Shown here one piece after another: positions 35,252-60,061 of a stretch of 64,000 nucleotides of DNA; position 1 is the stretch's first letter; each line of letters starts with the position of its first letter. The translations under genes were made by a program, and so were the position numbers. Source of the stretch: Archangium violaceum (lineage in GTDB: Bacteria; Myxococcota; Myxococcia; Myxococcales; Myxococcaceae). The notes beneath the pieces are model-generated. The model worked only from the letters and a program-made list of their open reading frames with translations, ran no database searches and was not told the origin of the DNA. The stretch spans positions 8,414,001-8,478,000 of the forward strand of contig NZ_CP069396.1 in NCBI RefSeq assembly GCF_016887565.1, given 5' to 3'.

Positions 35252-35307
35252 GTCACGCTGCACGGACTACTTGCGCGGGAGGGTGAAGCCATGTCACTAC
35301 CGGGGGC

Positions 35308-38644: not shown

Positions 38645-38745
38645 CACGCTCCCCCGCTCTCTCGCAGCTGCATGCCGGTGATGGCCCACGAGCCCCCGGC
38701 ATTTTTTGGCCTCCGCAGCCCGTGCAGCTGCGGTGCCGCGAAGCA

Positions 38746-38940: not shown

Positions 38941-38954
38941 TACAAGATGACCCA

Positions 38955-39287: not shown

Positions 39288-39288
39288 A

Positions 39289-40665: not shown

Positions 40666-40902
40666 GCCGCACCTCCGATCAAGGTGACTGGCCCCAGGAT
40701 TACAGGAGGGTCCGACAGGCACGACAATCCATCAGGTGGGTGAAGGTATTGACGACGTGAAGGATAGGACCCCGCGCCATGAAATGAGCCGAGCGGGATG
40801 GTCGCCGACGGCTCCACCACCGCTCACGGCTGCGTGCCGGGACTCACCACTGCTGGGAGTTGCTCATCGCACGATCCTGCCCTTTGCGGTAGAGGGAGCC
40901 TC

Positions 40903-41669: not shown

Positions 41670-41671
41670 GG

Positions 41672-42853: not shown

Positions 42854-42863
42854 GAAGATACCT

Positions 42864-42878
42864 CCTGAACCTTTCAGG
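42864..42878. promoter_or_regulatory. Palindrome overlapping kinase Shine-Dalgarno (copy B)
   Basis: CCTGAA-N3-TTCAGG, the same arms and position relative to the GTG start as at 32559-32573. Sequence just upstream of it is less conserved between the copies than the palindrome. Confidence 0.5.
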
Positions 42879-42992
42879 CACTCAGATTCAAAAATGAGTT
42901 CCTTTCAGGTAACACAGGAGACCATCGAAAGAAAGCACCGGCCAACCAAGCAGGTCAGCGCCCAGACTCAACCTGCTGGAGCGGGGGAGCTT

Positions 42993-43919
42993 CTACGGGA
43001 ACGTCACGCCGCCGAGGGCGAGGCCCTCAGCTCCGGCCTCTGCCGCCCACAGTTTGAGCGTGAAGGTACCCCGGGCCTCGCTCTCCGCCGCGTTCAGCTC
43101 GACCACGATGCGTTTCGACTTCCTCGGCGGGATGGGCTCCAGGGGCCACACCGTCAGCCCCGTCAGCTCCTCGTGCTTGGAGCCCACCAGGGCCGCTCCC
43201 GAGGGCGTCCAGGTCACCGTTCCCCAGTTGAACAGCTCCATCTCCACGGCCACTCGTCCCCGCCCATCAGGTCCAACGGCCCGGTAGCTGATGACCTTCC
43301 ATGCGGCGAGGGGATCCCCTGGGCGCGAGGTGACGGCCTTGAGCTCCCGGGCGACAACGCCCTTCTTGCCGAGCCATCGGTTGACGATGAGCCCCATGAG
43401 CCCACCCTGCCCACTGCACTCGGCCTGGAGACGCGCCTTCTCCTCCCGGCACTGCTGGGCCTCGGCTCGTGCCTGCTGCTCGCCCTGCCGGAGGGAGGCC
43501 ACGGTACGCTCGTGGCGCGATACCTCTACCTGGCGCTCCGCCTGGGATGGGTGGACCACCAGCACGAAGGTGGCACTCGGTGGCGCCGCGCCGTCCTCGA
43601 AATAGACCGTCACCGGCACGCGCTCCCCATCGTGCAGCGCCTCCGAGGCCACGAGCGTCAGGGTGTCGTCCACCAGCTTCACCCGGCGGAACCGCTCCTG
43701 CCCCTCGACCTCCACGCTCGCGAGCTTCGCGTCGAAGAACAGCGTGAGGGACAACTCCGGCCGGATGCACACCTCCGGCGTCTTGCTGGGGGTGTCCGCC
43801 GTCAGCTCGATGTAGCGCGTCCCCGCTTCGCAGGTGGGGAGCGGCGCCCGCTCGGTAGCCTCGACGGGTGCGGTGAACAGGGCCAGCCCGAGCAGGGCGG
43901 TGGAGGACAAGGTGAACAC
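42993..43919 (-). CDS. DUF2381-family exported protein (copy B)
   Basis: 308 aa from GTG 43919, preceded by GGAGG; the annotated frame upstream was rejected because the copy at 32744-33670 starts at the equivalent codon. Signal peptide ends near PVEATE. Same layout as copy A: TRYIELTAD, VCIRPELSLTLFFDA, Gln/Arg-rich helical middle, C-terminal beta domain ending LGGVTFP. It lies directly downstream of the intact receptor kinase. Function of the family is unknown; co-occurrence with kinases suggests a signalling or envelope-sensing role. Confidence 0.8.
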   Translation of the reverse strand: MFTLSSTALLGLALFTAPVEATERAPLPTCEAGTRYIELTADTPSKTPEVCIRPELSLTLFFDAKLASVEVEGQERFRRVKLVDDTLTLVASEALHDGERVPVTVYFEDGAAPPSATFVLVVHPSQAERQVEVSRHERTVASLRQGEQQARAEAQQCREEKARLQAECSGQGGLMGLIVNRWLGKKGVVARELKAVTSRPGDPLAAWKVISYRAVGPDGRGRVAVEMELFNWGTVTWTPSGAALVGSKHEELTGLTVWPLEPIPPRKSKRIVVELNAAESEARGTFTLKLWAAEAGAEGLALGGVTFP

Positions 43920-44029
43920 GGAGCGGGAACCTCCAGGAAGAGACCGGAGACGTGGGCCTCTAACACACCTTCCTGCCCGGTAATGCGCGAGCCGCCTGGG
44001 CTTCCAGCCCGCCAAGCCCCGGGATGGCG

Positions 44030-46054: not shown

Positions 46055-46793
46055 GGTGCCGCTCCAGCGGGAGCACGGGCCCGTGACGGTAGGAGTTCGA
46101 TCATGCGTTCAACCTCGGGAGTGGGGAAGCTACCAGAACCATGCGCCTCCCGTGCCTGAGGACGTGTCCGGCCCCGGCTGTTAGGTGCCTAGCTGGCCGG
46201 GGCGGCGGCTACCGCCCTGCGAGCACAATGCCCTGGGGTGACGTGAGCGCCCCTTGTGCCAAGAGGCAGGCGTCGTCCACAGCGCCCGCTTTCTTTTGGG
46301 GGCCGTGCTGGATCATGCAGTGAAGTCCCTCCTCCAAGAGCACAAACACCATCAGGGCAATGCTTCGAATCTCCATTCCCGAGCCATTCGCGCGACCTTG
46401 CACTTTCAACACCGGCCTCGGAGAGCGATCTCCGGGGCCGGTGCGTTTCTCCCCCACGTTTCCGTGACCTTCGCCGCTCGACGAGCCCGCCGCGCGCGTG
46501 GACCTCGTTCGCGCAGAGAGCGCCGTGGGCGAGAAGGAGCGCGCACGACGAGGGCGTTCTGGGCGGCGTTCGCGCTCTCTGTCCTCCGGGGATAGAGAAG
46601 CCGAGAGCGTTCAACAGCGGAGGGCCTTCGGGCAGGACGGAGCCGTTGATGGTTAACTGGCCACTGGGCGAACGCGGGCGAAGCGGGAGGGCGCCGCCTC
46701 GTGCTCGCTGTTGATCGCCGGGTCACCAGGGAGGCGCCGGCTCCCGCCCGCAGAACCGCCTGGCGGGCGTTCAAGCCCTAGTCGTTCGCGAGG
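46055..46793. other. Intergenic region between toxin cassette and defence operon
   Basis: 739 bp. No gene is supported. A minus-strand frame (46209-46457) contains a plausible MEIRSIALMVFVLL start at about 46373 but lacks family features. The remainder is GC-rich non-coding sequence. It is the junction between two functional blocks and probably contains the receptor-kinase promoter (near 46055-46130). Confidence 0.45.
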
Positions 46794-48644
46794 TCATGCT
46801 GAGCCGCCCGGCGATGGGATGAAGCCCCGCCGCCCCTGATCGTTCCCGGTGAACAGCACTACGTTCACGTCACCGATGGCGCCGTCGCTGGGGAGTTGCC
46901 TACGGTTCTCGATGATGATGACCTGCGCATCTCCGAAGGACGACTTCACGCTGTCCCAGAAGTGTTTCTTGATGTCCTGCGGGAACTCGGTCTCACCGGC
47001 ATCCGGCTTCTCGTACACGATCAGCGGCGAGTCGATGAGCACGAGGTTGGGGAACGGCCTCTCCTCTCGAACGCAGTACCGAAGCAACGCGAGGTTGAAT
47101 GCCGCGCGGAAGATCGCTCGGACACCCTTTCCATGCGTTCGCCGCGCTCGACCGGAGATGACGACGTCCTGGTCCTTCTCGCTGAAGGTGACGCGATCGA
47201 GGTTCGGGTAGCGCCACTCACGAAGAAGCGACTCCACCTCCTTGCTGAACGGCTCGGCTTGACCGGTGCTGACGGTGGATGCCGGACCTTCGGCGCGCTC
47301 CCTCTTCTGCGGGGTGTTGGCCTCTGCCAGGAGGCCTTCCAGTTCCTGCACACGTTCAAGAAGCTCCAGGGCCTTCTTGCACGCATCACGGCGTGCGCGG
47401 ATGTCGTCGACCTTCTTGGCGGCGACGTCCACGCGTTGCTCAAGTACGGTCTTCAGTTCCGCCGCGACCGCATCGAACTCGCCTTGGAGCACATCCCGCT
47501 CGCTCGTCAGTTGCTCCACCTCGGCGGCGGTGGTCGCGCGCGTCGACTGGAGGTCCTGGAGGAGCCTGATGGTCTTGGCGGATTCGGCCTTACAAGCCTG
47601 GGAAACATCCGCAGGTGCGAGTCGCTCCATCCGATGTGAATTGTCGTGGTGTTCCGCCTGCGCACCGCACATCGGGCACCGCTCCTCCTTGAGCTGGTCG
47701 AGCCTCACGCCGGCCTCGGAGATCGCCTCCAGACGTCGCAAGTCGGACGCGTACTGCTCATGGAGGAGGTCGAATCGCTTCTGCAGCTCCGAGAGCACGT
47801 TGAGCTTCGATTCGGATGCTCGCAGCCGCTGCCATGCACCACGGCGCTTCGCCTCCAACGGGGAAGCATTCTTCTGTTCCGCGTCCCGTTCCGCCATTGC
47901 CTGCTGGAGGGCCGCCTCAAGTCGGGCGAGCCGATCGCGCTCGTCGAGGAGGCTTCCCACCTCGCCGACATCGGCCAACCCCTCGCGGGCTTTCTGCAGC
48001 AGCACCTCGAGGACCTCGGCCTTTCCCTCTTTCCGCCCCTTCGCGACCTTCGGGTCCTCCTTCGCGATGACCGAAGAGTCATCCGTGCCCGTCAGCAGAA
48101 GGCGGAAGACACCGCTCTCAACGGTCTTGTGAATGACCTGCCCACTCAGGACCGGCGACGTCTCCTTGATGACGGTTTCTTCGTCGATGAGGATGAGTGG
48201 CGCGATGTCCCGGAAGCTCAGCGGGCGCGTTGTCCCCTGCTTGTTGATGCGGACCTTCTTGCTGCCGAGCCCGGACAACTCAAGGAGGAACTGCGAGACC
48301 GTGTCCTCTTTGCCGCCTTGGTGCTTCGCCGCGAGGATGCGATCCGGCTCGCCCTGCGTCGTGAGGCGGATGTCTCCTCCGCGAATGCTTCGCTCGAGCG
48401 TGAAGATGCGCTTGTCGTGGTTCGACTCGATCTCGAGGATGACGGTCGTGTAGCGCTCGACCTCGGGGATTTCCTTGGGCGGCTCACCGCTGCCCAACGC
48501 ATAGTCGATGCATTGGGCGATGAAGCTCTTCCCGGAGTCTGAAGGCCCCGCGATCACGTTCAGCCCTCGCGTGAACGCCACCTCGGCGGCCGGCAAACCG
48601 GGCCCGGTGAGAACAAGTCGTCGAAGGGCAAAGCCGAACTTCAC
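46794..48644 (-). CDS. ABC-3C system zinc-hook ATPase (DUF3732-like)
   Basis: 616 aa from GTG 48644 with GAGGAGG ahead, overlapping the previous stop in GTGA. SMC/Rad50-type ATPase: Walker A GPSDSGKS (33-40) in an N-terminal half-domain, a long coiled coil interrupted by a zinc-hook CPMC motif (LKEERCPMCGAQAEH), and a C-terminal half-domain with LVLIDSPLI as Walker B. DUF3732 proteins are the ATPase of the ABC-three-component group, predicted conflict systems that sense DNA or invader signals and act through a third, effector protein. It is the last gene of the eight-gene operon. Confidence 0.8.
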   Translation of the reverse strand: MKFGFALRRLVLTGPGLPAAEVAFTRGLNVIAGPSDSGKSFIAQCIDYALGSGEPPKEIPEVERYTTVILEIESNHDKRIFTLERSIRGGDIRLTTQGEPDRILAAKHQGGKEDTVSQFLLELSGLGSKKVRINKQGTTRPLSFRDIAPLILIDEETVIKETSPVLSGQVIHKTVESGVFRLLLTGTDDSSVIAKEDPKVAKGRKEGKAEVLEVLLQKAREGLADVGEVGSLLDERDRLARLEAALQQAMAERDAEQKNASPLEAKRRGAWQRLRASESKLNVLSELQKRFDLLHEQYASDLRRLEAISEAGVRLDQLKEERCPMCGAQAEHHDNSHRMERLAPADVSQACKAESAKTIRLLQDLQSTRATTAAEVEQLTSERDVLQGEFDAVAAELKTVLEQRVDVAAKKVDDIRARRDACKKALELLERVQELEGLLAEANTPQKRERAEGPASTVSTGQAEPFSKEVESLLREWRYPNLDRVTFSEKDQDVVISGRARRTHGKGVRAIFRAAFNLALLRYCVREERPFPNLVLIDSPLIVYEKPDAGETEFPQDIKKHFWDSVKSSFGDAQVIIIENRRQLPSDGAIGDVNVVLFTGNDQGRRGFIPSPGGSA

Positions 48645-49159
48645 GACGCCTCCTCTTCCCAGAGCACGGACTCCATCGTGAACTCGGCGCCCCACGTGCC
48701 GATGCGCTCACGAACCACTGCGTCGAGCTCGGCGTCGTCGAGCAGTCCGTAGCTATCGACGAGCCAGTCAGCCCTTGCCCGCAGGCCCGTGACGTACTCG
48801 GTGCTGAGGGCGTCGAGGAAACCTGCGGACTTGTCCGTGGCCGTGAAGAAGATGCCGCCATCCTGATAGACGCGCTCGATGAGGCCTCGGCTCTGGTAGA
48901 GGAGTAGCCCCTCTTGGAGCACGCCGCGCCGCACGAAGATCTCGCCGCCGCGATGAGGGGTCTGCGGGTGAAGGCCTGCAGGGCCGCCGGGCATGTCATC
49001 CGAGTGCACGCTCAAGTAGTCAAACACCACGAGGCGTTCGAGCGAGTACGAGGCCGGGTACGCGGCGGTGAGGATGCACAGCGCACGGAGCCCGAGTTCT
49101 ACCGGCCCGTTGAACAGCGCGACGTCCTTGAGCGGCTTCTCCGACGTCACTTCACCCAC
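48641..49159 (-). CDS. ABC-3C middle component (MC2-like)
   Basis: 172 aa. It carries the pattern ALFNGPVELGLRALCIL, FDYLSVHSDDMPGGPAGLHP and RRGVLQEGLLLYQSRGL known from middle component 2 of ABC-three-component systems, a small helical adaptor between ATPase and effector. GTG 49159 was used; another GTG at 49150 makes a GTGA overlap with the preceding stop and may be the true start. It is followed by the ATPase gene in GTGA. Confidence 0.75.
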   Translation of the reverse strand: MGEVTSEKPLKDVALFNGPVELGLRALCILTAAYPASYSLERLVVFDYLSVHSDDMPGGPAGLHPQTPHRGGEIFVRRGVLQEGLLLYQSRGLIERVYQDGGIFFTATDKSAGFLDALSTEYVTGLRARADWLVDSYGLLDDAELDAVVRERIGTWGAEFTMESVLWEEEAS

Positions 49160-50232
49160 CGAACCTTTCCGTCGTTCGCGAGTTGGTGGCAGATGCCGCC
49201 ACGATCCCGGACGTGAATTCGAGTGTGAAGGGGGTGGGCTGCCAGCGGCAGAATGCGCGCCGTCTTCACCACAGCCACGACACGCCGGTATCCATCGACG
49301 TGGACATCGCGCACGTCGTCCTTGATGCCTGCGTGAACCTCGTCTTGAAGCTTCTCGAACTCGCCCGGAGGCAATGTGTCGCGCGAGAATGTGCGCAAGG
49401 ACTCGGCGCTGTAGAACTCGACGCGGGAATCGGCGAAGTGCTCCCGAAGGTCATCGCGCGCAGCGAGGTCGTCGACGTCGTTCACGTCCTGCTTCAGATG
49501 ATCGCCGTACGCCCGCAGGAGTTCGCGCACGAAGACTGACTCAGTCGCCCCAGGCAAGACTGGAGGCGTGAGGGGGGCGGGGCGAAGCGGAAGTCCGCCG
49601 CCAAACCGAGCCGCGTGCCACCGGGTCTTCGCGTGCCCGTCGATGATCCGCAGTACCGGCGTGGCTTCGAAGATGGAGAAGTCGAGGCTCGCGATGTGCG
49701 CCTTCATCGCTGCGTCGCAGTCGACCTCCTCAGTATTGGTGATCCCCTCACGACAGTATTCATCCCAGTTCTTCAGGAGCCCATCGCGAAGGTCGTCAGC
49801 CTTCTTCAGCAGGTTCGACAACTTCGTGCCAGCCCCCTGCGGCGCGATGAAGCGGTATCGGCGCGGATAGGTGTAGTCGCCTCGCTTCGTGTAATAAGCG
49901 AGCTTCCCCAGCTCGACCCAGATGTCCGTGGGCTTGAGCGACTCCTTGTAGTGCTTGCACTGGTAGTTGTCCCACGCCCCGTTCCCGCCCTTCACGGTCG
50001 CAATGACGTCTCGGCCCATGTCGCCGGCGCCACCACACCGCTCGACGAGCTCGTACTCATCGCGAAGCGAGTCGACCCACTCGTGGACGAAGACCTCCCA
50101 CTGCGACGCGCTGAACAGCTTGATGCGGTCCTCGGGATGGACCGGCAGACCCGACGCCACGACGTCAGCAGCCAGTCCAGGCGGCGGCGTCGGCGGCTGC
50201 GGGATCGGAGCGGGCGGCGGAATCTTTTTCAA
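49147..50232 (-). CDS. ABC-3C effector with Mrr-like PD-(D/E)XK nuclease
   Basis: 361 aa from TTG 50232, fixed by GGAGG seven bases ahead and the TTGA overlap with the Res stop. After a Pro-rich N-terminal tail, residues 40-100 form a restriction-endonuclease-like core: Glu46 (QWEVF), GAGDMGRDVIA (Asp75) and YQCKHYK (Gln91-x-Lys93), the D-QxK form typical of Mrr-type nucleases. The C-terminal ~250 aa are alpha-beta with no recognised motif and may be the ABC-3C association domain. Predicted to cut DNA when triggered by the middle component and zinc-hook ATPase. Confidence 0.72.
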   Translation of the reverse strand: MKKIPPPAPIPQPPTPPPGLAADVVASGLPVHPEDRIKLFSASQWEVFVHEWVDSLRDEYELVERCGGAGDMGRDVIATVKGGNGAWDNYQCKHYKESLKPTDIWVELGKLAYYTKRGDYTYPRRYRFIAPQGAGTKLSNLLKKADDLRDGLLKNWDEYCREGITNTEEVDCDAAMKAHIASLDFSIFEATPVLRIIDGHAKTRWHAARFGGGLPLRPAPLTPPVLPGATESVFVRELLRAYGDHLKQDVNDVDDLAARDDLREHFADSRVEFYSAESLRTFSRDTLPPGEFEKLQDEVHAGIKDDVRDVHVDGYRRVVAVVKTARILPLAAHPLHTRIHVRDRGGICHQLANDGKVRWVK

Positions 50233-53200
50233 GCAGTGACCTCCGAATCGTCGAGGTGCAGCACCTCGATGAACCGCGCGAGGTGCGTCGTCGTCTCCGC
50301 GTCCTCGGGCGTGAGCAGGATCGGCTTGAACTTCGGGTCGTAGCTGACCGGCGACAGGCGAGCCCCCGTCGGCGTCAGTTCCCAGCGCTTGAACGTGAAG
50401 CCGCCGAGGCGTGGATCGTCCGGGTCCTCGCGGCGCACGAGGAGGTACTCGCCGGGCGCCGGAGCGGGCGCGCCAGCCGGGCCAATATGCTGCCAGAGGC
50501 ACCACGCGCCGTCCGGCGCGACGCGGTTCATCGAATTGCCAACGACCCTGGCGACGAAGAGCCCAGGCCGCTTCGCCTTCCTGGCCTCGAGGTAGACGCG
50601 GCCGAGCTCTTCCGGGTCTTGGCCCTCGGAGAACGCCGTGGCGGCGGCCTTCAGGTCGTAGACCAGCACGGCCACACCCGTCGGCTCGCTGGCAATGGCC
50701 ATCTTCTTCTGCTTGGCGGCCGACCCGCGCGACTGCCAGTACTTGTCGACCTGCGGGCTCACAAACCGGTAGTCGATGCCGAGCGTCGCGAAGTAGCGCT
50801 CAGCGAGCACGAGCTTGCGCCCCTCGTTGAGGAAGCGGAGCTTGTTGAGGTCGTCGCCACCCTTCGTCTCGCGCACCAATTCGAGCGAAATCGGCGCTCC
50901 CTTCTCGTGCCGGAGCACGCCCCAGTCCGGGTTGTAGTTGCCGATGATGCGCGGCAGCCCGATGCGGAAGCGCGGCGGGAACTTGAAGTAGACGACGAGG
51001 TTCTCCTCATCGGGTCGAAGATGCTCGTTGACGAACTTGCGCTCGACGTCCGAGTCGACCTGGACCTTGTCGTAGAGCGAGGTCGGCCCGCCGTCGATCA
51101 GCTCGCGCTGCACCTGGTCCAGCTCCGGCGGGAAAGCCAGTTCGATCGGCCCGATGTCGTCTTCGCGCGTGCCGGTATCTCGGAAGCGAAGCCGGTCGAC
51201 GATATGGTCCTTCACCGTGTCGCCGACGATGCGCACGAAGGTGTTGGCCCAGCCTTCTGGGTGCGCGTGGAGCGTCACTTTTTGCTCCTGGCTTACGCCC
51301 TGGAAGATTCGCCAGAGCGTGGCGCGAGTCAGGAACGTCTCCTCGGCGGCGCGCCCGAAGAAGTCGGGGATCGGTTGGTCGACGTGTGCGGCCGCGACCT
51401 CGCGGGTGGGGTTGTTGTCGAGGCGGGTGCCGGAGAAGTGGTGGGTCTCGCTCTCGCTGATCTGCACCTCGTTCGTGAAGCGGACGCGCATCTCGCCGAG
51501 GTGGCGACCGATCTCCATCACCTTGAAACCACGCAGGTGCGGGTTGTGCGTCACCTGCGCGAGGTCCGTGTCCACTTTGACATTGACGATCTTCTCTTCG
51601 GCCGGGACGAGTCCGAGGTGCAGCTCCTCTGCCTCCGACGACAGCTCGCGGATGCGGAGCTGCGCGCCGTCGGTCCCGATCGCCTTCACGAACTCCAGCG
51701 TGTACTCGACGACAACAAAGCGCCCCTTCGTGACGGCCAGCATCGGCTTCGGAAAGGGCGTCGACGCCGGGTCATTGAGCCGGTCCGTTGCCTCCTTGAT
51801 GAGCGCCTCGGTGTCGATGTCGATCGTGTACTCGAGGCGCTGGCAGAGCTTGTCCCAGAACTGCTTGAACTCGGCGTTCTGCGCGAGCGTATCGCGGCGC
51901 TTCGCGACGGCCTTCCCGGGCCGCGTCGGGGCCGGAGGCGCTTGATCGCCCGCCTCGCGGTACTCGGTCTGCAGCGTGCGGACGTAGGTCTCGTAGCTCT
52001 CGTTGGCGATGACGGTGAGCACGTTGAGCGCCGGATCGGTGAGCCGCTCGCCCTTCTGGTTCACACAGAGGCGCAGGCCGCGCCCGATCTCCTGGCGCTT
52101 CTTCATCACGCTCACCGTCTGGTTGAGCGTGCAGATCTGGAAGACGTTCGGGTTGTCCCAGCCCTCGCGCAGCGCAGAATGCGCGAAGATGAAGGCGACC
52201 TTGCTGCCCGGGTCCTTCTCGTTGGGGAACGAGAGCAAGACCTCCTTCTTGCGCATGATGAGCTCGAAGGCCTCCTTGGCCTCCTTCGAGTCCTCGCCCA
52301 CCTCGTCGAGGAAGACCTCCTCCTCGGCGCCACCCTTCTTCTTCTTGGTCGTCTTGGCGAAGTAGGCCTCGCGGACCTCCTCGGCATCGAAGTGCTTGAA
52401 GTCAGGCTCCTTCTTCTTCAGCGCGTTGAAGCACTCGTCGAAGAGGTTCTTGATGCGCGGCGTGTCGCCCGTGTAGTTCGCGACGCGGTCGATGAAAAAG
52501 AGCGAGAGCACCTTTACGCCGTGCTTCTTCAGCTCGCGCTGGCGCGCGAAGTGACTCTTGATCGTCTCCTCGATCTGGAGCTTCCACGCCTGCTCTGACG
52601 ACCCCTGAAGGTCGTCCTCGGTGGTGAGCATGCGCCCGCCGTCGCCGCCGCCATCCAGCTCGATGGCGGCGGGAAGCCCTTCGCCAGCGGCGCGGATGTT
52701 CGCGACCTTGAGCCCCTCGTGCTCAGGAAGCTTCGTCTGCTTGAAGATGCTCTCGCCCTGTTTGAAGGTCAGTTCCTTCGCGCGGGTCTCGTTGTTCCTC
52801 TCGAGGCACAGCGCGCGCACCTTGGCCACGGGCTTGGCCCCGCTGCGGGTCACGTCGAGCAAGCGCAACGTCGACTTGCCAGAGATGCCAAGCTCCGCGA
52901 TGCCCGTGACCTGTACGTGCTTAACGAGACCGAGCCGGAAGGCCTGCACGGGCGTGAGCCGGTAGACAGGGTTTGGCTGGTCGTCGGCCTTGTGGGTCGC
53001 CGAGTAGCGCAGCACGAAGAGCGGGCGCAGCGTGCGGATCGCCTCCTTCGACTTCTCCGAGCCCATGTTCTGCGGCTCGTCGAGGATGACGATGGGGCGC
53101 GTGCGCTGAATCCACTGGTACGGCTTCAGCTCGCTGATGACGCTGTCGTTCGCCTTGTAGAGGTTGTTGCTCGCGCGGCTGAATGACTGAAGCGTCATGA

Positions 53201-53771
53201 TGAGCAGCGACGGGAACACGTCGCGCGCGAAGGCCGGGACGATGCCGGGCTTCCCGCCGTCATAGACACGGCGCGAGAAGTTCGTGGTGCCGAAGAGGGC
53301 CTTGAAATGGTCCCTCATGTCGTCGAACGCTTTCTTAACGCCCTCGAGGATGGCGACCGAGGGCACCACGACGATGAACTTCGTGAAGCCGTAGCGCCGA
53401 TGCAGCTCGAGCATCGTGCGCAGGTAGACGTAGGTCTTGCCGGTGCCCGTCTCCATCTCGATGGTGAAGTGCGGGCATGAGTGAGCATCGACACTGACGC
53501 CGTCGAGCATCACGCCGTCATCGCGCGTGAGGCGACCGACGGCGAGCGAGGCCTCGGGCTGTTCGGCGTTGTGGGCGTTCTGGATGCGGCGGAGGTTCTC
53601 CTCGATGAGGTCGTCGGCGAGGTCGTCCCACTCATCGGCGTTGCCAATGATGTCCTCGATGTTGAGGAACGACGCGGCGGCGCGCTTGTCGAGGCCATCG
53701 AAGAGTTCGGCGACGTTGTTCACCGCCGCGAGCTGGTGCGGGAGGTCCGCCTGGAAGGTGAAGAAGCTCAT
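50229..53771 (-). CDS. Type III Res helicase-nuclease with C-terminal S24/LexA-like domain
   Basis: 1180 aa from ATG 53771, GAGG ahead. Superfamily 2 helicase: Walker A ETGTGKT (107-113), DEPQ box (231-234) and C-terminal motif VI-like EIGRGLRL. A PD-(D/E)XK nuclease follows: NPDWG (about 947) and ETKG (968-971), as in type III Res subunits. The extra ~120-aa C terminus looks like a LexA/UmuD-type domain: VVGNSMNRVAPDGAW with Ser1080 and FTFKRW with Lys1128 in the right order for the Ser-Lys dyad. It starts 12 nt after the Mod stop, and its stop overlaps the nuclease gene. Confidence 0.85.
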   Translation of the reverse strand: MSFFTFQADLPHQLAAVNNVAELFDGLDKRAAASFLNIEDIIGNADEWDDLADDLIEENLRRIQNAHNAEQPEASLAVGRLTRDDGVMLDGVSVDAHSCPHFTIEMETGTGKTYVYLRTMLELHRRYGFTKFIVVVPSVAILEGVKKAFDDMRDHFKALFGTTNFSRRVYDGGKPGIVPAFARDVFPSLLIMTLQSFSRASNNLYKANDSVISELKPYQWIQRTRPIVILDEPQNMGSEKSKEAIRTLRPLFVLRYSATHKADDQPNPVYRLTPVQAFRLGLVKHVQVTGIAELGISGKSTLRLLDVTRSGAKPVAKVRALCLERNNETRAKELTFKQGESIFKQTKLPEHEGLKVANIRAAGEGLPAAIELDGGGDGGRMLTTEDDLQGSSEQAWKLQIEETIKSHFARQRELKKHGVKVLSLFFIDRVANYTGDTPRIKNLFDECFNALKKKEPDFKHFDAEEVREAYFAKTTKKKKGGAEEEVFLDEVGEDSKEAKEAFELIMRKKEVLLSFPNEKDPGSKVAFIFAHSALREGWDNPNVFQICTLNQTVSVMKKRQEIGRGLRLCVNQKGERLTDPALNVLTVIANESYETYVRTLQTEYREAGDQAPPAPTRPGKAVAKRRDTLAQNAEFKQFWDKLCQRLEYTIDIDTEALIKEATDRLNDPASTPFPKPMLAVTKGRFVVVEYTLEFVKAIGTDGAQLRIRELSSEAEELHLGLVPAEEKIVNVKVDTDLAQVTHNPHLRGFKVMEIGRHLGEMRVRFTNEVQISESETHHFSGTRLDNNPTREVAAAHVDQPIPDFFGRAAEETFLTRATLWRIFQGVSQEQKVTLHAHPEGWANTFVRIVGDTVKDHIVDRLRFRDTGTREDDIGPIELAFPPELDQVQRELIDGGPTSLYDKVQVDSDVERKFVNEHLRPDEENLVVYFKFPPRFRIGLPRIIGNYNPDWGVLRHEKGAPISLELVRETKGGDDLNKLRFLNEGRKLVLAERYFATLGIDYRFVSPQVDKYWQSRGSAAKQKKMAIASEPTGVAVLVYDLKAAATAFSEGQDPEELGRVYLEARKAKRPGLFVARVVGNSMNRVAPDGAWCLWQHIGPAGAPAPAPGEYLLVRREDPDDPRLGGFTFKRWELTPTGARLSPVSYDPKFKPILLTPEDAETTTHLARFIEVLHLDDSEVTA

Positions 53772-53783
53772 GCGCGCGCCACC

Positions 53784-55607
53784 TCAGAGGACCTTGAACG
53801 TGGAGTCGGCGAGCTTCAGCGCGTCGTAGAACCGGGCCTTGGCGACGTCGGTGAGCGCTTCGTCACGGCAGACGAAGATGTGGTTCTTCTTGTCGCGGAG
53901 CGCGTCGAGGAGGTCGTCGTCGACCTTCGGGTCGAGGCAGAGGAGCAGCGGCTGCGGCACGCGCGGGTTCTCGAAGCGCCAGAGCGTGTTGGCCGAGTCC
54001 TGCGGCACCTGCTCGCGCTTGGCGTCGAGCGGAAACCCGAGGAGCAACAGCACCTCGGTGAAGAGGTCGGCGGGCTGAATGTGCGCGAGCTTCTCCTTGA
54101 ACATCGCGAGCTGCCCCTTCTCGAGCTGTTCGGCGGCGAGGTGCAGGGGGCGCGCGAGCGCGGGCGAATCCTCCTTGAAGACCCGGAAGCCGAGATCGCC
54201 CTTCACGCCCTCGGCCTTCATCGCGGTCGAGGCGCGGCGCAGGCGCTCGCAGGTGATTTGGTCGATGGTCTGGTAGTCGGACCCATCTACGCCCTCCGGA
54301 ACTTGCACGAGGATGAAGCGCCGGGTGCCGCCGTCTTCGGCGTTGTGTTGGAAGACTGCATCGCCGGTGGTGCCCGAACCGGCGAAGAAGTCCAAGATGA
54401 TGTCGTCGCCGCTGCTGACGTGCTCGATGATACGGCGGATTAGCTGTACGGGCTTGGGGTTGTCGAAGACTTTCCCTGGAACTCGGACGGCAAGGTCCCG
54501 TGTGCCATCGTCGGTGTTGCCGGCGTACTTGTGGTCCCAGAAGTTGATGGGCGTGAGTCCACGACTCTCGGATAGAAACATCTTGATGCTGGGCACGGCC
54601 GAACGTCCGTCTTTGCCCCAGTAGAGCAATCCCTCGCTCTGAAGGCGCTGAAACTCCTCCTTCGAGCGGCGCCATGCGTTCTTGGTAGGGAGCGTGGTTT
54701 CTCCTGTCGTGGGGTTCACGAGCGGGTAGCAAAGGTTGGGGCGTTCGTCTGGCGTCGCAGGATTCAGAAAGGACGCGCCTTTCCAAGGCCCTCGTGGATC
54801 GTTATCCGGGTTGGTGTATCGCGCGTCCGCCTCATCGCTTCTTGGGAGCAAGTTGACTGTGAACGCGTCTGAGCGCGCGTACACGAGGATGTGCTCAACA
54901 ACCGTCGTGAAATCCACGGTGTTGTTGCTCCGCGTGTACCTCTTCTGCCAAATGACGTCCGTCTTGAAGTTCTCGGCGCCGAAGATCTCGTCCATGAGGT
55001 GGCGAAGGTTGTGTACCTCGTGGTCGTCGATCGAAATGAAGATCGCTCCGTCGTCGCGCAGGAGGCTACGAGCCACCCGTAGCCGTGGGTACATGAAGTT
55101 CAGCCAGTTCGAGTGGAATCGCCCGCTCGTCTGCGGGTTCGACACGAGCCGGCCATGGAGATCCGCCTGCCGCGTGTCTTGCAGGTACAGCTCCTCGTCA
55201 ACGGCAAAGTTGTCTTTGTAGATGAAGTCGTTGCCGGTGTTGTACGGCGGGTCGATGTAGATGAGCTTGATCGAGCTCGCGTAGCTCTTCTGCAGCGCGA
55301 GCAGCACCTGCAGGTTGTCGCCGACGATCACCATGTTGCCGGTGGTGTCTTCGTCGACGCCCGCCTTGGGCACCGGGCGCAGCGTCACGTGCGGCGGCTG
55401 GTTGGCGAGCCTGCGCGCCTGCTGCTTGCCGGGCCATCTGAGGCCGTAGTGCTCGGTGTCAGGAGCGTCGCTCGCGCTGTCCTCAAGGACCTCACGCAGA
55501 CGCTCGACGTTCACTCGGCCGTCCGTGAACACCTCGGGAAACAGATCGCGGAGCACTTCGAGGCGCTCTTCGCTGCTCGGACGACGTTCGATCTTCTCAG
55601 GCTTCAT
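53784..55607 (-). CDS. Type III Mod DNA methyltransferase
   Basis: 607 aa from ATG 55607, ATGA overlap with the nuclease gene. Beta-class amino methyltransferase: catalytic IDPPYNTGNDF (118-128) precedes SAM-binding LDFFAGSGTTGDAV (405-418), as in EcoP15I-type Mod proteins. The middle region is the probable target-recognition domain; the C-terminal part is alpha-beta. It methylates adenine in an asymmetric recognition site, protecting the host from the Res partner 12 nt downstream. Adenine specificity follows from DPPY and context. Confidence 0.93.
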   Translation of the reverse strand: MKPEKIERRPSSEERLEVLRDLFPEVFTDGRVNVERLREVLEDSASDAPDTEHYGLRWPGKQQARRLANQPPHVTLRPVPKAGVDEDTTGNMVIVGDNLQVLLALQKSYASSIKLIYIDPPYNTGNDFIYKDNFAVDEELYLQDTRQADLHGRLVSNPQTSGRFHSNWLNFMYPRLRVARSLLRDDGAIFISIDDHEVHNLRHLMDEIFGAENFKTDVIWQKRYTRSNNTVDFTTVVEHILVYARSDAFTVNLLPRSDEADARYTNPDNDPRGPWKGASFLNPATPDERPNLCYPLVNPTTGETTLPTKNAWRRSKEEFQRLQSEGLLYWGKDGRSAVPSIKMFLSESRGLTPINFWDHKYAGNTDDGTRDLAVRVPGKVFDNPKPVQLIRRIIEHVSSGDDIILDFFAGSGTTGDAVFQHNAEDGGTRRFILVQVPEGVDGSDYQTIDQITCERLRRASTAMKAEGVKGDLGFRVFKEDSPALARPLHLAAEQLEKGQLAMFKEKLAHIQPADLFTEVLLLLGFPLDAKREQVPQDSANTLWRFENPRVPQPLLLCLDPKVDDDLLDALRDKKNHIFVCRDEALTDVAKARFYDALKLADSTFKVL

Positions 55608-56470
55608 GCGCTCGTTCCCTCGTCTTCCACATCGATGCGCGCGGTCGCGGTCACGCCGCTATCGCGCCAATCCTGTTTCTCGGCGTCGCCGCCGAAGTCG
55701 GCGCTCGCGTCGCGCAGCGCCTGGTCAGCCCGCCCCGGCGACTGCGCGCGCACGAGCTGGCGGTACGAGGCGCAACCGAAGCGCGCGTCGCAGTTCAGGC
55801 ACACGTCCTGTGCGAAGGGCACCTTGCCATCGGGTCGCGATGATGCCTTCAGCACTTCGAGGCTGGGCGGGCTGAATTTGCGGTCCTCGATGAGGTCGAC
55901 GACGCGCCCGAAGCTCTCCATCACCTCGGCGACGACGTTGCCATCCACGGGCACCTCGAGCACAGGAGCCCACGCCTCCATCGCGGCCTGGATCTTCGCG
56001 GGCTCCCCGGCGCGCAGCGCGCGGTAGAGGGGCCTCGTCGGGCGCGTGGCGATCACCGCGACCTTGTCGAGCTGCCTACCACGCAGCCCCTTCCAGATGT
56101 GCGCGTAGACGTTGAGCTGGCGGTAGTGCGGCTCGACGTGATCGCGCGCGGCGTCGGCGTCGAGGTACGTCTTCAGGTCGTACATGACCGTCGACGAGCC
56201 GTCCTCGACGATGTCGACCACGCCCTCGAGCGTGTACTGGCGACCGGCGGGGCTCGTCTGCTCGGGCAACACGAGCCGCACTTCGGTCTCCTCGACCTGC
56301 GCGGCGAGCTCGCGCAGGCGGCGGTAGTAGAGCAGCACCTGCTGACGCGCGGACTCCTTAATGAACGGCGCGAGCGACCTGCCGCTCTCCTCGCGCAGTC
56401 GCTCGAAGTTCGCCTCGAAGGCCTCCATCAGGAAGCGCTCGTCGTCGGTCAGCGGCATCTCCCAGCTCAT
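55604..56470 (-). CDS. PD-(D/E)XK nuclease, AddB/Cas4-like
   Basis: 288 aa from ATG 56470, ATGA overlap with the helicase stop; the longer upstream frame is rejected. The catalytic core is LEGVVDIVED (Glu82, Asp86), then YDLKTY (Asp98, Lys100) and QLNVYAH (Gln118, Tyr122): the D-DxK-QxxxY pattern of RecB/Cas4/AddB nucleases. Near the C terminus CLNCDARFGC gives three Cys that could bind metal or, with another Cys, an iron-sulphur cluster. Paired with a UvrD-like helicase it probably processes DNA ends, like AddAB in miniature. No standalone RecB homologue fits better. Confidence 0.78.
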   Translation of the reverse strand: MSWEMPLTDDERFLMEAFEANFERLREESGRSLAPFIKESARQQVLLYYRRLRELAAQVEETEVRLVLPEQTSPAGRQYTLEGVVDIVEDGSSTVMYDLKTYLDADAARDHVEPHYRQLNVYAHIWKGLRGRQLDKVAVIATRPTRPLYRALRAGEPAKIQAAMEAWAPVLEVPVDGNVVAEVMESFGRVVDLIEDRKFSPPSLEVLKASSRPDGKVPFAQDVCLNCDARFGCASYRQLVRAQSPGRADQALRDASADFGGDAEKQDWRDSGVTATARIDVEDEGTSA

Positions 56471-59046
56471 GCCGCACCTCCTGCCTGCTGCGCGGCCTTC
56501 TTCGCCTTGCGGGCCGCGATCATCCGGTGGTGCAAATCTTCGAGCGTCGCGTGGACGAGGCTGCCGAAGAACATCGTCTGCGTGCGGCTCGCCGCGAAGC
56601 CGTAGCGCTCGAACAGCATGTACTGGCGAGGGCACCGCTGGTACGCGAGGTAATCGCTCGTGTAGCTGAAGCGGCGCACGGCGGCGTCGGGCTCTTGCTT
56701 CGCCTTCGGCACGGAGCGCACGTCGAAGCCGGCGATGGGCGCGGCGGTGCGCATCAGCTCGTGAAACTCGGCGTCGACCTTCTGGCCCTGGCCCTTCGGA
56801 TGCGCGAGGACAAGGAGGTTCTGTGCGCGAGAGAGCGCCACGTAGAACATCCGCATCGCGTCGAAGCCAGGCATGCGGTCGAGCGGCTCGCCACCGGGTG
56901 GGAGGAACGGGCGCACCAGCTCCTCGACCTTGCGGGCGCGACGCTGCGTGCGCGCGCTGCCGAGGACAACGACCGGGAACTCCAGCCCCTTGCTCTGGTG
57001 GATGGTGAGGAACGGAATGCGACCGCGCGGGAACGGATCTTCGGCGTCCTCGTACTCGCCTTCGCCCATGCGGAAGAGGGCAAACAGGAAGGCTTGGTAG
57101 AAGCCCCGCTGAAGCATCTCAGTCGCGAGGCCCTGACCGGTGATGAGCGGCGGGAACGTGTCAACGTAGCGCGCGAGCAACTGGCTGGTCAGCGCGAGGT
57201 TGCAAACCGGCGCCTCGTCGGTGCCGCCGTCGGCGAGGTCGATCATCTCGCGGAAGCGCTGGAACCCGAGGAAGCGGTAGAAGAGATCGAGCAAGCCCCA
57301 GTCGGCCGTCGTCGCCCGGTTGATGACGTTGCGGAGGCTGAGCGGGTTGTTCTCGGCGAGGCGCTCCTTGTAGAGCTTCTCGAGGCCCGCACCGCCGAGC
57401 GCGCGCCGCGCGTCCGCCGAGAGTCCCGCTGCGTTGAGGAGCGGGCGCTTGTGCGTCACGGGATCGTAGGCAGCGTCCTCACTCCAGCCCGCCTGTTCGA
57501 GCACCGCCTTCAGCGCGGCGTAGTCCCGCTTGATGGCGTTCAGTTCCGAGACGCGTTGGTCGACGAAGTCGCGCAGCGTGGGGTCGCTCGCCATGAGCGC
57601 GTCGGCGACCGTCGTGGCGCTGTCGAGCCAGGAGTGGAACTCGCCGTACTCACCACGGTCGAACGCCTCGTTGCGCGGCGGGCGCCCCAGCACGCGCGTG
57701 AGGAGCCCGATGATGAGCGTCGGCTCGTCGGCCTCCAGGAAGCGCTTGGCGCGCGGCGCGTAGACGCGGAGGCCCACGCGACCAAGCGCCTCTTCGAAGC
57801 GCTCGACGATGGTGCTCTTGAGCGTGGGGAACAGGAACGCGATCTGGTTCGGGTCGGCGACGACCTTCTCGTCGATGAGCCGACGGCACAGGGTCGCGAT
57901 CTCGTCGACCAGCTCGACGGGATTGCTCGGAGCAGTCGCCACGACCGAGACGCCGTCGTCGGTGCTGTGGGCGCGCACGCCCTTGTCGTGCAGGCGGAAC
58001 TGCCCGCCACCCGGCCGGGACCAGTCGTGCTCGGTGACGAACGACGTGTAGGCCTGCACGATGCCGCGCCGGGAGCGGTAGTTGATTCCGAGTTCGATGC
58101 GGCGCGGCTCGACGCCGAGCACGCTCGCACAACGCTTGGGGAACTCGACGAAGTTCTCGACCGTCGCGCCGCGAAATCGATAGAGCGCTTGGTCATCGTC
58201 ACCGACGACGCAGACGTTCTTCGAGCCGCCCGCGAGGCGGAAGAAGATGCGCTCCTGGATGGCGTTCGTGTCCTGGTACTCGTCGACGATGACGTGCTTG
58301 AACCGGTGCATCGTGCCGTCGTTTGCGAGCAGGGCGCGGTACGCCGCACGCTGAAGGAGCGAGAGGTCGACGCGATTCTTGCCGAGCCGGTCGCGGTAGA
58401 GCTGGTACAGACGGAAGAGCGATGCGTACTCGGTGGGCGCCTTCTCGAGGATCTCCTTCGGGTCGAGGTCTTCCTCTGAAAGCCGGTTGAATAGCGACTG
58501 GAGGTTCACCACCGCCTTGTGGCGGCTTGCCGACGCGGGCGGGTCGAACTGCGCGTTCAAGGTCTCGCGGAACGCGGGCCGCTCGCCCTCGAAGCCGAGC
58601 TGCTTTATGGCCTCGGACCAGAACGAGCCCTGGGCCAGCGTGAAGTACTGATCCAGCTCGTCGAGCACGGCGGGCGCGGAGGAGCGCTCGCGGTCGGCCA
58701 CGAAGGTGCGGTCCTGAAGCAGGCGGTGGCAGAGCGAGTGGACCGTGCCCACGTACATGCCGGAGAGGTCGTAGGGCTTGCCGGTCTGCTCACTGGCGAG
58801 ACCGAGCAGCGACACGAGCCCGTCCTGGAGCTGCTTCGCGGCCTTCTCGGTGAAGGTGCTGAGGAAGATCGACTCCGGCGAGACGCGGTGGAACACGATC
58901 ATGTTCACGACGCGCCAAAGGAGGACGCGCGTCTTGCCGGAGCCCGGACCAGCGACGAGGAAGAGCGGGCCATCGAGGTGCTCGATGGCGTGGCGCTGGC
59001 TCTCATTCGGCGAGAAGCCCACACGGGCAAAGAGGGACTCGATCAC
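56467..59046 (-). CDS. UvrD/PcrA-like superfamily 1 helicase
   Basis: 859 aa from GTG 59046, GTGA overlap with the HTH gene (the upstream frame is antisense to the integrase). Motif I AGPGSGKT (32-39), Q-motif-like FSPNESQRHAIE just before it, DEYQDTN (Walker B), GDDDQALYRFRGA, LTIHQSKGLEF and YVALSRAQNLL. All main superfamily 1A motifs are present, so a 3'-5' DNA helicase is expected. The C-terminal end shows TSDYLAYQRCPRQYMLFERYG, a segment common in helicases that work with RecB-like nucleases, and indeed a PD-(D/E)XK gene follows. Confidence 0.9.
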   Translation of the reverse strand: MIESLFARVGFSPNESQRHAIEHLDGPLFLVAGPGSGKTRVLLWRVVNMIVFHRVSPESIFLSTFTEKAAKQLQDGLVSLLGLASEQTGKPYDLSGMYVGTVHSLCHRLLQDRTFVADRERSSAPAVLDELDQYFTLAQGSFWSEAIKQLGFEGERPAFRETLNAQFDPPASASRHKAVVNLQSLFNRLSEEDLDPKEILEKAPTEYASLFRLYQLYRDRLGKNRVDLSLLQRAAYRALLANDGTMHRFKHVIVDEYQDTNAIQERIFFRLAGGSKNVCVVGDDDQALYRFRGATVENFVEFPKRCASVLGVEPRRIELGINYRSRRGIVQAYTSFVTEHDWSRPGGGQFRLHDKGVRAHSTDDGVSVVATAPSNPVELVDEIATLCRRLIDEKVVADPNQIAFLFPTLKSTIVERFEEALGRVGLRVYAPRAKRFLEADEPTLIIGLLTRVLGRPPRNEAFDRGEYGEFHSWLDSATTVADALMASDPTLRDFVDQRVSELNAIKRDYAALKAVLEQAGWSEDAAYDPVTHKRPLLNAAGLSADARRALGGAGLEKLYKERLAENNPLSLRNVINRATTADWGLLDLFYRFLGFQRFREMIDLADGGTDEAPVCNLALTSQLLARYVDTFPPLITGQGLATEMLQRGFYQAFLFALFRMGEGEYEDAEDPFPRGRIPFLTIHQSKGLEFPVVVLGSARTQRRARKVEELVRPFLPPGGEPLDRMPGFDAMRMFYVALSRAQNLLVLAHPKGQGQKVDAEFHELMRTAAPIAGFDVRSVPKAKQEPDAAVRRFSYTSDYLAYQRCPRQYMLFERYGFAASRTQTMFFGSLVHATLEDLHHRMIAARKAKKAAQQAGGAA

Positions 59047-59264
59047 TTCCGGACCCCCTTTGGCCGCCGTGGCCCCTCGGTCTTCTTGGTGGTCCTCGCG
59101 ACCTGCGAGGCCATCCACTCCTCGATGTCGGCACGCCGGAACCGCCACTGCCCGCGCACCTTGAACGCCGGGATCTCCCCCTTCTGGGCCATCGTGTAGA
59201 CGGTCTTGTCCGCGACCTTCAGCAACTGGGCGATCTCGGGCAGTGTGAGAATCTCGTCCTGCAT
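59043..59264 (-). CDS. Small excisionase/MerR-like HTH DNA-binding protein
   Basis: 73 aa from ATG 59264. Winged helix-turn-helix of the excisionase family: LTLPEIAQLLKVADKTVYTM, GEIPAFKVRGQWRFRRADIE and a basic tail. As first gene of the eight-gene operon and next to an integrase remnant it could be the island's excisionase or, more likely, the operon's autoregulator. A palindrome lies 26 bp upstream. Its TGA overlaps the helicase GTG. Confidence 0.85.
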   Translation of the reverse strand: MQDEILTLPEIAQLLKVADKTVYTMAQKGEIPAFKVRGQWRFRRADIEEWMASQVARTTKKTEGPRRPKGVRK

Positions 59265-59377: not shown

Positions 59378-59926
59378 GTGGCGAATCAGCCCAGGTGGCC
59401 CATGATCTCCCTCGCCCTCAACACCGGCCTGCGCATCGGCGAGCTGGCCGCGCGCTCCTGGGACTGCGTGGACATGGCCTCCGGGCGGCTGCTGGTGAAG
59501 CGCAACGTCTTCCGGGTGCACCTCGGCACTCCGAAGGGCGGGCGCGAGCGAGAGGTGCCGCTCAACGAGCGGGCGCTGAAGGCCCTACGGGACTACCCCC
59601 GGCGCATCGACACGCCATGGGTGTTCCCCCAGCGGGACGGCGGCTTCATCCGCAATCCCCAGCACACCTGCGCGGAGGCCATCCTCCGGAACGCGGAGCG
59701 GGCGGGCATCCGGCCCATCGGGTGGCACACGCTGCGCCACACCTTCGCGAGCCACCTCGCCATGCGTGGGGTGCCGCTCAAGGCCATCCAGGAGCTGATG
59801 GGGCACGCCACCATCGAGATGACGATGCGCTACGCACACCTGAGCCCGGACGTGAAGAAGGACGCGGTGCGGGCCCTCGACGTGCGCCCCAACGGCACAT
59901 TGACGGCACATATACAGGAGGCGTAG
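59378..59926 (+). pseudogene. 5'-truncated tyrosine integrase
   Basis: 182 codons that make an almost complete catalytic domain: Arg in NTGLRIGEL, Lys in TPKGGRE, HTLRHTF (H-x-x-R), MGHATIEMT (His) and MRYAH (nucleophile Tyr). The arm-binding and core-binding N-terminal domains (~180 aa) are missing and are not encoded upstream in any frame, so the protein is probably inactive. It ends 54 bp from the tRNA-Leu gene, the usual place for the integrase of a tRNA-targeting island. Confidence 0.85.
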
Positions 59927-59970: not shown

Positions 59971-59999
59971 CTTTCGGAGTGCCCAGGGCGGGATTCGAA
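59938..59999. repeat. Direct repeat: tRNA-Leu 3' end plus terminator (candidate attR)
   Basis: The intact partner of the copy at 27790-27850. It comprises the T-arm and 3' acceptor strand of tRNA-Leu and its terminator. The two copies flank about 32 kb. Confidence 0.75.
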
Positions 60000-60061
60000 C
60001 CCGCACACCTTTCGGCGCCACCCCCTCAAGATGGTGTGTCTACCAGTTCCACCACCTGGGC
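59980..60061 (-). tRNA. tRNA-Leu (anticodon GAG)
   Basis: 82 nt. Acceptor arms GCCCAGG / CCTGGGC pair perfectly, with discriminator A and no encoded CCA. The long variable arm (class II) and D-arm GTGGAACTGGTAGACAC fit tRNA-Leu. The anticodon stem CCATC/GGTGG encloses loop TTGAGGG, giving GAG. T-arm GCGGGTTCGAATCCCGC. It lies after secG, as leuU does in E. coli. Its 3' part is duplicated at 27.8 kb. Confidence 0.95.

What the first reader, a model, noticed from the sequence alone, without database searches (positions are those of the whole stretch)
46794..59264. Eight-gene composite defence operon joining type III restriction, a helicase-nuclease pair and an ABC-3C set
Seen: HTH, UvrD-like helicase, PD-(D/E)XK nuclease, Mod, Res, Mrr-like nuclease, MC2-like protein and zinc-hook ATPase are all on one strand; six of seven junctions overlap (GTGA, ATGA, TTGA) and the other gap is 12 nt. 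Known: type III R-M and ABC-3C systems are separate defence classes. Inference: they form one unit in which Mod marks self, Res and the helicase-nuclease pair attack foreign DNA, and ABC-3C is a second, perhaps suicidal, response. I do not know a described system with this full set.
Basis: partly seen in the sequence, partly recalled or inferred. Interest (0 to 1): 0.88.

Follow-up and report, generated by a model that had tools for sequence, protein, structure and literature searches.

The report
Type III restriction operon with Lamassu
A soil bacterium carries two known anti-virus weapons, a DNA-cutting system and a probable suicide system, packed into one tight eight-gene operon; the same operon occurs in a distant relative, but the suicide half is also found alone, so it looks like a modular two-layer defence rather than a wholly new machine.

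Summary
In detail: eight overlapping genes on the minus strand, six 4-nt overlaps and one 12-nt gap. The first five are an HTH regulator, a UvrD helicase, a Cas4/RecB-like Fe-S nuclease, and type III Mod and Res; UvrD-Cas4 beside type III Mod/Res is published (Hudaiberdiev 2017). The last three are Lamassu (LmuA-LmuC-LmuB), a kind of ABC-3C. The full set recurs, same order and junction geometry, in one genome of another family, where a MukFEB/JetD set follows. Broken or recombined copies of the Res-LmuA junction occur in two further loci. So chance neighbourhood is unlikely. Yet the halves are separable: silent divergence is clearly higher in the Lamassu genes than in UvrD, nuclease and Res; most Lamassu relatives examined have no type III genes in the DNA held; one relative keeps intact Lamassu behind a decayed res end. 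New here: the composite; a helicase-nuclease split leaving one of four predicted Fe-S cysteines on the helicase; and a LexA/S24-like tail on Res, seen once elsewhere before an overlapping GmrSD gene. Best reading: a modular two-layer operon that moves as a block. Co-expression is inferred, and cross-talk between layers is not shown.

The parts
59043..59264 (-). HTH_17 / excisionase-like regulator, 73 aa, first gene of the operon
   Evidence: Pfam HTH_17 1.6e-18; NCBIfam MADS MAD1 model 83.2 bits, cut-off 80; 84% identical in G189
56467..59046 (-). UvrD-family SF1 helicase, 859 aa, ending in the first part of a Cas4/RecB-like nuclease with one conserved Cys (C805)
   Evidence: Pfam UvrD-helicase 4.8e-56; PDDEXK_1 2.1e-4 (just under cut-off) at aa 798-851; alignment with fused relatives; motifs
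55604..56470 (-). Cas4/RecB-like nuclease remainder, 288 aa, D98-x-K100 and C224-x2-C-x5-C; Shine-Dalgarno-like AGGAGG 6 nt before its ATG
   Evidence: 16-row alignment, invariant E63 D86 D98 K100 C224 C227 C233; AF2 pLDDT 71, Foldseek best hits AddAB and Cas4 SSO0001 with TM 0.35-0.37; junction
53784..55607 (-). Type III Mod, 607 aa, beta-class (DPPY at 119, FAGSGTT at 408)
   Evidence: PADLOC MTase_III 3.1e-168; motifs
50229..53771 (-). Type III Res, 1180 aa: SF2 motor, PD-(D/E)XK domain, C-terminal LexA/S24-like tail
   Evidence: PADLOC REase_III 9.5e-167; RE_endonuc 2.2e-22; motifs
50229..50696 (-). LexA/S24-like tail of Res (aa 1026-1180), GNSM (S1080) and FTFKR (K1128)
   Evidence: Pfam S24 E 0.012, below cut-off; hhalign to own LexA score 41.6 against best of 100 shuffles 18.4; same tail family with Schlafen-helicase proteins where Pfam S24 passes its cut-off
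49147..50232 (-). LmuA: N-terminal Mrr/PD-(D/E)XK-like effector (D...QCK) and CTD6, 361 aa
   Evidence: Pfam CTD6 6.1e-42; PADLOC LmuA 1.5e-117; motif
48641..49150 (-). LmuC / MC2 middle component, 169 aa
   Evidence: Pfam MC2 3.6e-46; PADLOC LmuC 6.4e-49
46794..48644 (-). LmuB SMC/Rad50-like ATPase, 616 aa, Walker A, zinc hook CPMCG, Walker B
   Evidence: PADLOC LmuB 1.4e-164; motifs
46391..46618 (.). 3' flank shared with G189, where it lies just after tRNA-Asn and beyond the added MukFEB/JetD genes; likely edge of the transferred block
   Evidence: blastn 76.6% over 239 columns; sequence comparison; tRNA-Asn in G189
59402..59926 (+). Remnant of the tRNA-Leu island's tyrosine integrase; homology to longer ORFs in sister species (333 aa in G001, 260 aa in G003) starts at 59402
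59979..60061 (-). tRNA-Leu(gag), attachment gene of the island; 3'-end repeat at 27784-27854

Best explanation
A mobile, modular two-layer anti-phage operon. Layer 1 is a type III R-M system (Mod marks self; Mod-Res cuts unmarked DNA) with an accessory AddAB/UvrD-Cas4-like helicase-nuclease that probably unwinds and degrades the cut DNA. This nuclease is split into two chains, with its predicted Fe-S ligands shared between them. Layer 2 is a Lamassu whose LmuB-LmuC sensor is predicted to release the LmuA nuclease if invading DNA persists, harming the cell. One HTH-headed transcript with overlapping stop/start codons keeps the two layers co-expressed. Shown here: gene content, catalytic motifs, conserved order and overlaps, block boundaries that point to joint transfer, and purifying selection on both halves. 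Inferred: one transcript, the activities, and the order of action. The LexA-like tail of Res may regulate Res after DNA damage (inferred).
For: Eight genes in the same order in G189, another family of the phylum, with amino-acid identity HTH 84, UvrD 93, NUC 98, Mod 67, Res 92, LmuA 78, LmuC 76, LmuB 70% and the same junction geometry. Block boundaries in the window. dN/dS 0.04-0.20 for seven genes, 0.40 for Mod, whose central (presumably target-recognition) part has diverged most. PADLOC, Pfam and motif evidence for each part. UvrD-Cas4 with Mod/Res is a published neighbourhood. Further Res-LmuA junctions: contig L200 (Res 94%, LmuA 85% over aa 19-104 only) and G101 (decayed Res end just before open lmuA-C-B). 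Other composites in the phylum: HmaA-B-C, an HTH protein, then Lamassu in G022; Mod-Res(tail)-GmrSD in G056 with an ATGA overlap.
Against: UvrD+NUC+Res and Lamassu differ in silent divergence and the two composites' LmuB do not group together in the tree; each half is mostly found without the other in the loci examined, so joint function is not required. Only two intact full copies were found. No transcript data; the sigma-70 scan found 0 promoter-like sites (0.7 expected by shuffles) and 8 terminator-like sites (8.2 expected), none on the operon's strand; a weak test in a GC-rich genome.
Confidence: 0.66

Rival explanations
1. Integrated single system: the layers exchange a signal. For example Res/UvrD-NUC DNA ends or cleavage of the LexA-like Res tail trigger Lamassu, so the suicide response fires when restriction fails.
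For: res and lmuA overlap by 4 nt in window, G189 and L200. The tail's S/K dyad is conserved in 4 of 4 undecayed copies. On Res the tail occurs in two lineages, and in both it is followed in overlap by a second defence module, Lamassu or GmrSD; the 7 other Myxococcota Res proteins examined lack it.
Against: The Lamassu genes have another history than UvrD, NUC and Res; Lamassu persists open where res has decayed; the same tail family goes with Schlafen-helicase proteins with no type III genes recognised in the stretches fetched, so it is not specific to this pairing.
Confidence: 0.22
2. Mere defence-island neighbourhood: two unrelated systems landed side by side and the overlaps have no consequence.
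For: Defence genes cluster (general knowledge); the halves are mostly separate in the loci examined; the window block lies in a tRNA-Leu island.
Against: Same order and a 4-nt Res-LmuA overlap in two families; a third junction in L200 and a decayed one in G101; boundaries point to joint transfer.
Confidence: 0.12

Closest known systems
UvrD-Cas4 fusion with type III Mod/Res (Hudaiberdiev et al. 2017, PMC5704561, section 8 read; author name recalled)
   Same: SF1 helicase plus Cas4-like nuclease next to Mod and Res, several loci with an HTH gene; the five-gene half of the window fits this
   Different: Here helicase and nuclease are two chains, split inside the nuclease domain after the first cysteine; Res carries a LexA-like tail; Lamassu follows by a 4-nt overlap
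Lamassu / ABC-3C / DdmABC (review PMC10586767, passages read)
   Same: LmuA with CTD6, MC2-type LmuC, LmuB with zinc hook
   Different: Nothing seen in the three genes themselves; only their place as the 3' part of a type III operon
Type III systems with an extra helicase gene 5' of mod (PMC8259958, passages read)
   Same: An accessory helicase gene upstream of mod
   Different: There an SF2-like ATPase without an endonuclease motif; here SF1 UvrD plus a Cas4-like nuclease
Hma, then an HTH protein, then Lamassu in the myxobacterium G022 (found here)
   Same: A methylase/helicase defence operon followed by LmuA-LmuC-LmuB on the same strand
   Different: Different first module; a 661-aa HTH protein between; about 140 nt before the lmuA ORF, no overlap

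Membership tests
Type III restriction-modification | beta-class Mod plus SF2-motor Res with PD-(D/E)XK domain, adjacent | tested here: met
Type III restriction-modification | One-strand methylation and cleavage needing two inversely oriented sites | not testable with these tools
   needs methylome and cleavage assays
UvrD-Cas4 / type III association | UvrD helicase with Cas4-like Fe-S nuclease beside Mod and Res | tested here: met
UvrD-Cas4 / type III association | Helicase and nuclease fused in one protein | tested here: not met
   split at ATGA with an SD-like site; the same split in G189 (ATGA) and L081 (GTGA)
Lamassu / ABC-3C | LmuB SMC-like ATPase, middle component, LmuA with ABC-3C CTD in one operon | tested here: met
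Lamassu / ABC-3C | LmuA N-terminal effector is an active nuclease | tested here: inconclusive
   D...QCK motif; Pfam Mrr_cat only E 0.17-0.19
Lamassu / ABC-3C | Protection by abortive infection | not testable with these tools
   needs infection assays
MADS | MAD1 regulator together with the other MAD genes | tested here: not met
   MAD1 model passes but PADLOC gives only mad1 on the HTH and weak mad8 hits on Res and LmuB
S24/LexA peptidase domain (Res tail) | Family profile above cut-off with S/K dyad | tested here: inconclusive
   Pfam below cut-off; hhalign to LexA well above shuffles; relatives of the same tail pass Pfam in 5 of 5 loci scanned; AF2 of the tail failed, pLDDT 38.5
One integrated eight-gene system | Halves inherited together | tested here: inconclusive
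   together in window and G189, but different divergence and LmuB tree position

The most novel reading that the evidence does not exclude
A general 'type III core plus swappable 3' payload' architecture. Res proteins with a LexA-like tail act as the hand-over switch to a second defence module encoded in overlap behind them (Lamassu here, Lamassu then MukFEB/JetD in G189, GmrSD in G056): DNA damage from failed restriction triggers tail cleavage and arms the second layer.
Probability: 0.15. Interest if true: 0.82.

Novelty: new variant of a known kind. Interest (0 to 1): 0.55.

Why it matters
It is a concrete, conserved case of two defence classes joined in one operon with exchangeable parts, so the question whether stacked systems are wired together or only co-inherited becomes testable with single deletions. 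The LexA-like tail on Res offers a candidate molecular link, and the split Fe-S nuclease is a simple biochemical test case of a cluster shared between two chains.

Tried and rejected
MADS was considered because the HTH passes the MAD1 model; rejected, no other MAD gene beyond weak mad8 hits. A programmed frameshift joining UvrD and nuclease was considered; a separate start is preferred because of the AGGAGG 6 nt before the ATG and a 4-nt overlap kept in G189 and L081, but frameshifting is not excluded. The S24 tail was first thought to be a Lamassu partner because it precedes lmuA in G101; that stretch is a decayed Res end (stop inside, the dyad K changed), and the tail also occurs on Res before GmrSD and with Schlafen-helicase proteins, so that idea was dropped. 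The AF2 model of the tail is unusable. PDB sequence searches with the tail, LmuB and LmuA found nothing at the limits used. Searches of 188 genomes around G196 and 188 around G200 (drawn from the phyla of loci titled Planctomycetota and Kribbella) for close Res relatives found none at the strict limit of 1e-120 (no positive control, so they show little). In 398 genomes of the phylum of L081 the A3 nuclease profile found 2 at 1e-20, L081's own genome included. Krishnan et al. 2020, which (recalled) defined ABC-3C, is not held, so its gene neighbourhoods could not be checked. L200 may be a recombinant or an assembly chimera: an AAA ATPase gene and an unrelated N-terminus replace UvrD and the start of NUC.
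Full report
WHAT IS THERE. Eight open genes run on the minus strand from 59264 to 46794 with junctions GTGA, ATGA, ATGA, a 12-nt gap, TTGA, GTGA and GTGA. Profiles give HTH_17, UvrD helicase, a nuclease without a Pfam call of its own above cut-off, Mod, Res, CTD6, MC2 and an AAA/SMC ATPase. PADLOC names the last three LmuA, LmuC and LmuB, that is Lamassu. Key motifs are present: UvrD Walker A, DEYQD and HQSKGLE; nuclease D98-x-K100; Mod DPPY and FAGSGTT; Res GTGKT, DEPQ and PD...ExK; LmuA D...QCK; LmuB Walker A, zinc hook CPMCG and Walker B (motif meanings recalled).

THE HELICASE-NUCLEASE PAIR. In plasmid relatives (Phaeobacter, Yoonia, Vibrio, Blastomonas) UvrD and the nuclease are one protein of about 960 aa, followed by Mod and a DEAD/TnsA-N helicase. 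In the window the protein is split by ATGA inside the nuclease domain. The first conserved Cys (C805) stays on UvrD; the catalytic E, D, D-x-K and the last three Cys (C224, C227, C233) are on the second chain and are invariant in 16 of 16 aligned rows. Among 19 fused proteins checked by pattern, 18 show the first Cys motif and 19 the C-x2-C-x5-C. The second chain has AGGAGG 6 nt before its ATG. The same split occurs in G189 and in L081, at 46% identity; L024 is split elsewhere, before the nuclease domain. The nuclease model (pLDDT 71) matches AddAB and the Cas4 protein SSO0001 best, with modest TM scores of 0.35-0.37. The 2017 paper on Cas4 nucleases (PMC5704561, section 8 read) already reports UvrD-Cas4 fusions whose commonest neighbours are type III Mod and Res, several with HTH genes. 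It also reports unfused pairs, mostly in Clostridiales, in a context not indicative of defence. So the five-gene half is a known kind.

RELATIVES OF THE WHOLE SET. In Myxococcota the nuclease was sought in 195 genomes: close matches only in the window's genome and G189, which lies in another family (98%), plus one distant match in G137; a profile search of 193 genomes added only a distant match in G029. G189 has all eight genes collinear, with the same overlap geometry, and continues after LmuB with MukF-, MukE-, MukB- and JetD-like genes. PADLOC gave only a weak JetC hit on one of these four, so I call them MukFEB/JetD, Wadjet-like. A large serine recombinase lies upstream of the HTH in G189, running to the contig end, and a tRNA-Asn lies at the far end; a related recombinase lies on L200. 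In the window, DNA matches to G189 lie between 46391 and 59225, with gaps in mod and lmuB, and homology to longer tyrosine-integrase ORFs of two sister species begins at 59402. The block therefore seems to have entered, or replaced part of, a tRNA-Leu island (repeat at 27784-27854 and at the tRNA). LmuB was sought in the same 195 genomes: 10 matches at E <= 1e-30. Of these the window and G189 are full composites. G101 has open lmuA, lmuC and lmuB directly behind a decayed Res end with a stop inside. G022 has HmaA-B-C, an HTH protein and then Lamassu. G094 and G192 show only parts of LmuB, G192 with an LmuC fragment. G108, G144, G135 and G019 have Lamassu with no type III gene recognised in the stretch fetched. 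The viral-collection contig L200 has NUC (aa 74 on), Mod, full Res (94%) and LmuA only to aa 104.

SEPARABILITY. Between window and G189, dS is 0.44, 0.40 and 0.40 for UvrD, NUC and Res but 0.82, 0.81 and 1.05 for LmuA, LmuC and LmuB. Pooled pS is 0.317 (0.295-0.340) against 0.533 (0.497-0.569). Two genes of the first half do not fit so neatly and were not pooled: HTH has dS 0.75 (73 codons) and Mod 0.62, the latter driven by its middle, while its ends give pS 0.233. Around the junction the values are intermediate: last 150 codons of Res 0.399 (0.304-0.494), first 60 of LmuA 0.387 (0.240-0.528). GC3 also differs somewhat, which may add to the contrast. G189's LmuB is 91% identical to the viral-collection Lamassu L199, which has no Res tail in the 2.1 kb tested upstream, and 70% to the window's. 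In the LmuB tree the window groups with G101 and G094 (94/96, under the starred level), and no bootstrap tree of 200 puts the two composites together; a single origin is not ruled out by starred branches, and the LmuA tree is unresolved. Hence either the Lamassu half has been exchanged near the Res-LmuA junction or stand-alone copies come from composites. All genes are under purifying selection (dN/dS up to 0.20, Mod 0.40). Of 9 viral-collection contigs with LmuA relatives, 8 lack type III genes in the DNA held; 5 of these have at least 5.5 kb upstream of lmuA, 3 have 3 kb or less, and two of those three are near-identical. Of 37 UvrD-Cas4 loci screened with LmuB profiles of two types, 2 had one: the Phaeobacter and Yoonia plasmids, near-identical and with divergent orientation. 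The 37 are a selection: L007-L026, L081-L088, L230-L236, L253 and L254. They come from lists of 70 and 63 viral loci, 80 genome loci and 22 plasmid records. Flanks are limited, some loci are truncated and not all carry Mod and Res. Profiles for other LmuB types were not available, so 2 of 37 is a lower bound.

THE RES TAIL. Res ends in a 155-aa tail with GNSM and FTFKR. Pfam S24 is only suggestive (E 0.012 on the tail, below cut-off). HHalign to the genome's own LexA scores 41.6 against a best of 18.4 in 100 shuffles, with both dyad residues aligned. A profile of the tail finds matches in 5 of 378 genomes of the phylum of L081. The four strong ones and a Halomonas replicon carry it at the end of, or just behind, Schlafen-group-3 helicase proteins, and Pfam S24 passes its cut-off in all five; the fifth, weak match (G517) was not examined. 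In Myxococcota, 3 of the 10 Res proteins found at E <= 1e-40 have the tail: window, G189 and G056. In G056 the order is SNF2 helicase, DUF4391, Mod, Res-tail, GmrSD, with an ATGA overlap into GmrSD. So in the two lineages seen, tailed Res is followed in overlap by a second defence module. This is suggestive only: two lineages.

MECHANISM. Best reading: Mod marks self; Mod-Res cuts unmarked DNA; UvrD/NUC, by analogy with AddAB, processes the ends. Lamassu is thought to act by abortive infection with LmuA as effector (PMC10586767, passages read) and would be the fallback. Shown: content, order, overlaps, block boundaries and selection. Inferred: expression, activities and order of action.

NOVELTY. 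The full set was not found in print in the ten paper searches made (open-licence PMC only; of the papers listed I opened three, PMC5704561, PMC10586767 and PMC8259958). The defining ABC-3C paper (recalled) was not readable. I rate it a new variant of a known kind.

Noticed in passing
L004 2350-9810 (G189:C16): In G189 the operon runs on after LmuB into MukF-, MukE-, MukB- and JetD-like genes on the same strand, a twelve-gene stack of three defence classes.
   Followed up: partly
L183 3852-19345 (G022:C60): HmaA-HmaB-HmaC, a 661-aa HTH protein and LmuA-LmuC-LmuB lie in a row on one strand: another methylase/helicase system followed by Lamassu.
   Followed up: partly
L189 2299-13732 (G056:C19): SNF2 helicase, DUF4391, Mod, Res with LexA-like tail and a GmrSD type IV enzyme in one run on one strand; Res and GmrSD overlap by ATGA.
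   Followed up: partly
L249, L250, L251, L252, L243: Schlafen-group-3 helicase proteins, two of them with a weak GIY-YIG match, end in or (L243) directly precede a LexA/S24-like peptidase domain homologous to the Res tail.
   Followed up: partly
window 27784-60061: tRNA-Leu island of about 32 kb with a 3'-end repeat; sister species G001 and G003 have further copies of the repeat near the same tRNA, two in G001, as if other inserts lay there.
   Followed up: partly
window 28122-46054: Related cassettes seem to repeat inside the island: similar protein starts at 29390-30871 and 39289-40722, and at 32744-33670 and 42993-44015; kinase-like ORFs (by eye) at 41672 and 44030.
   Followed up: no
L200 5778-8080: An AAA ATPase gene and an unrelated N-terminus replace UvrD and the start of NUC before a complete Mod-Res: recombination or assembly chimera.
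   Followed up: no
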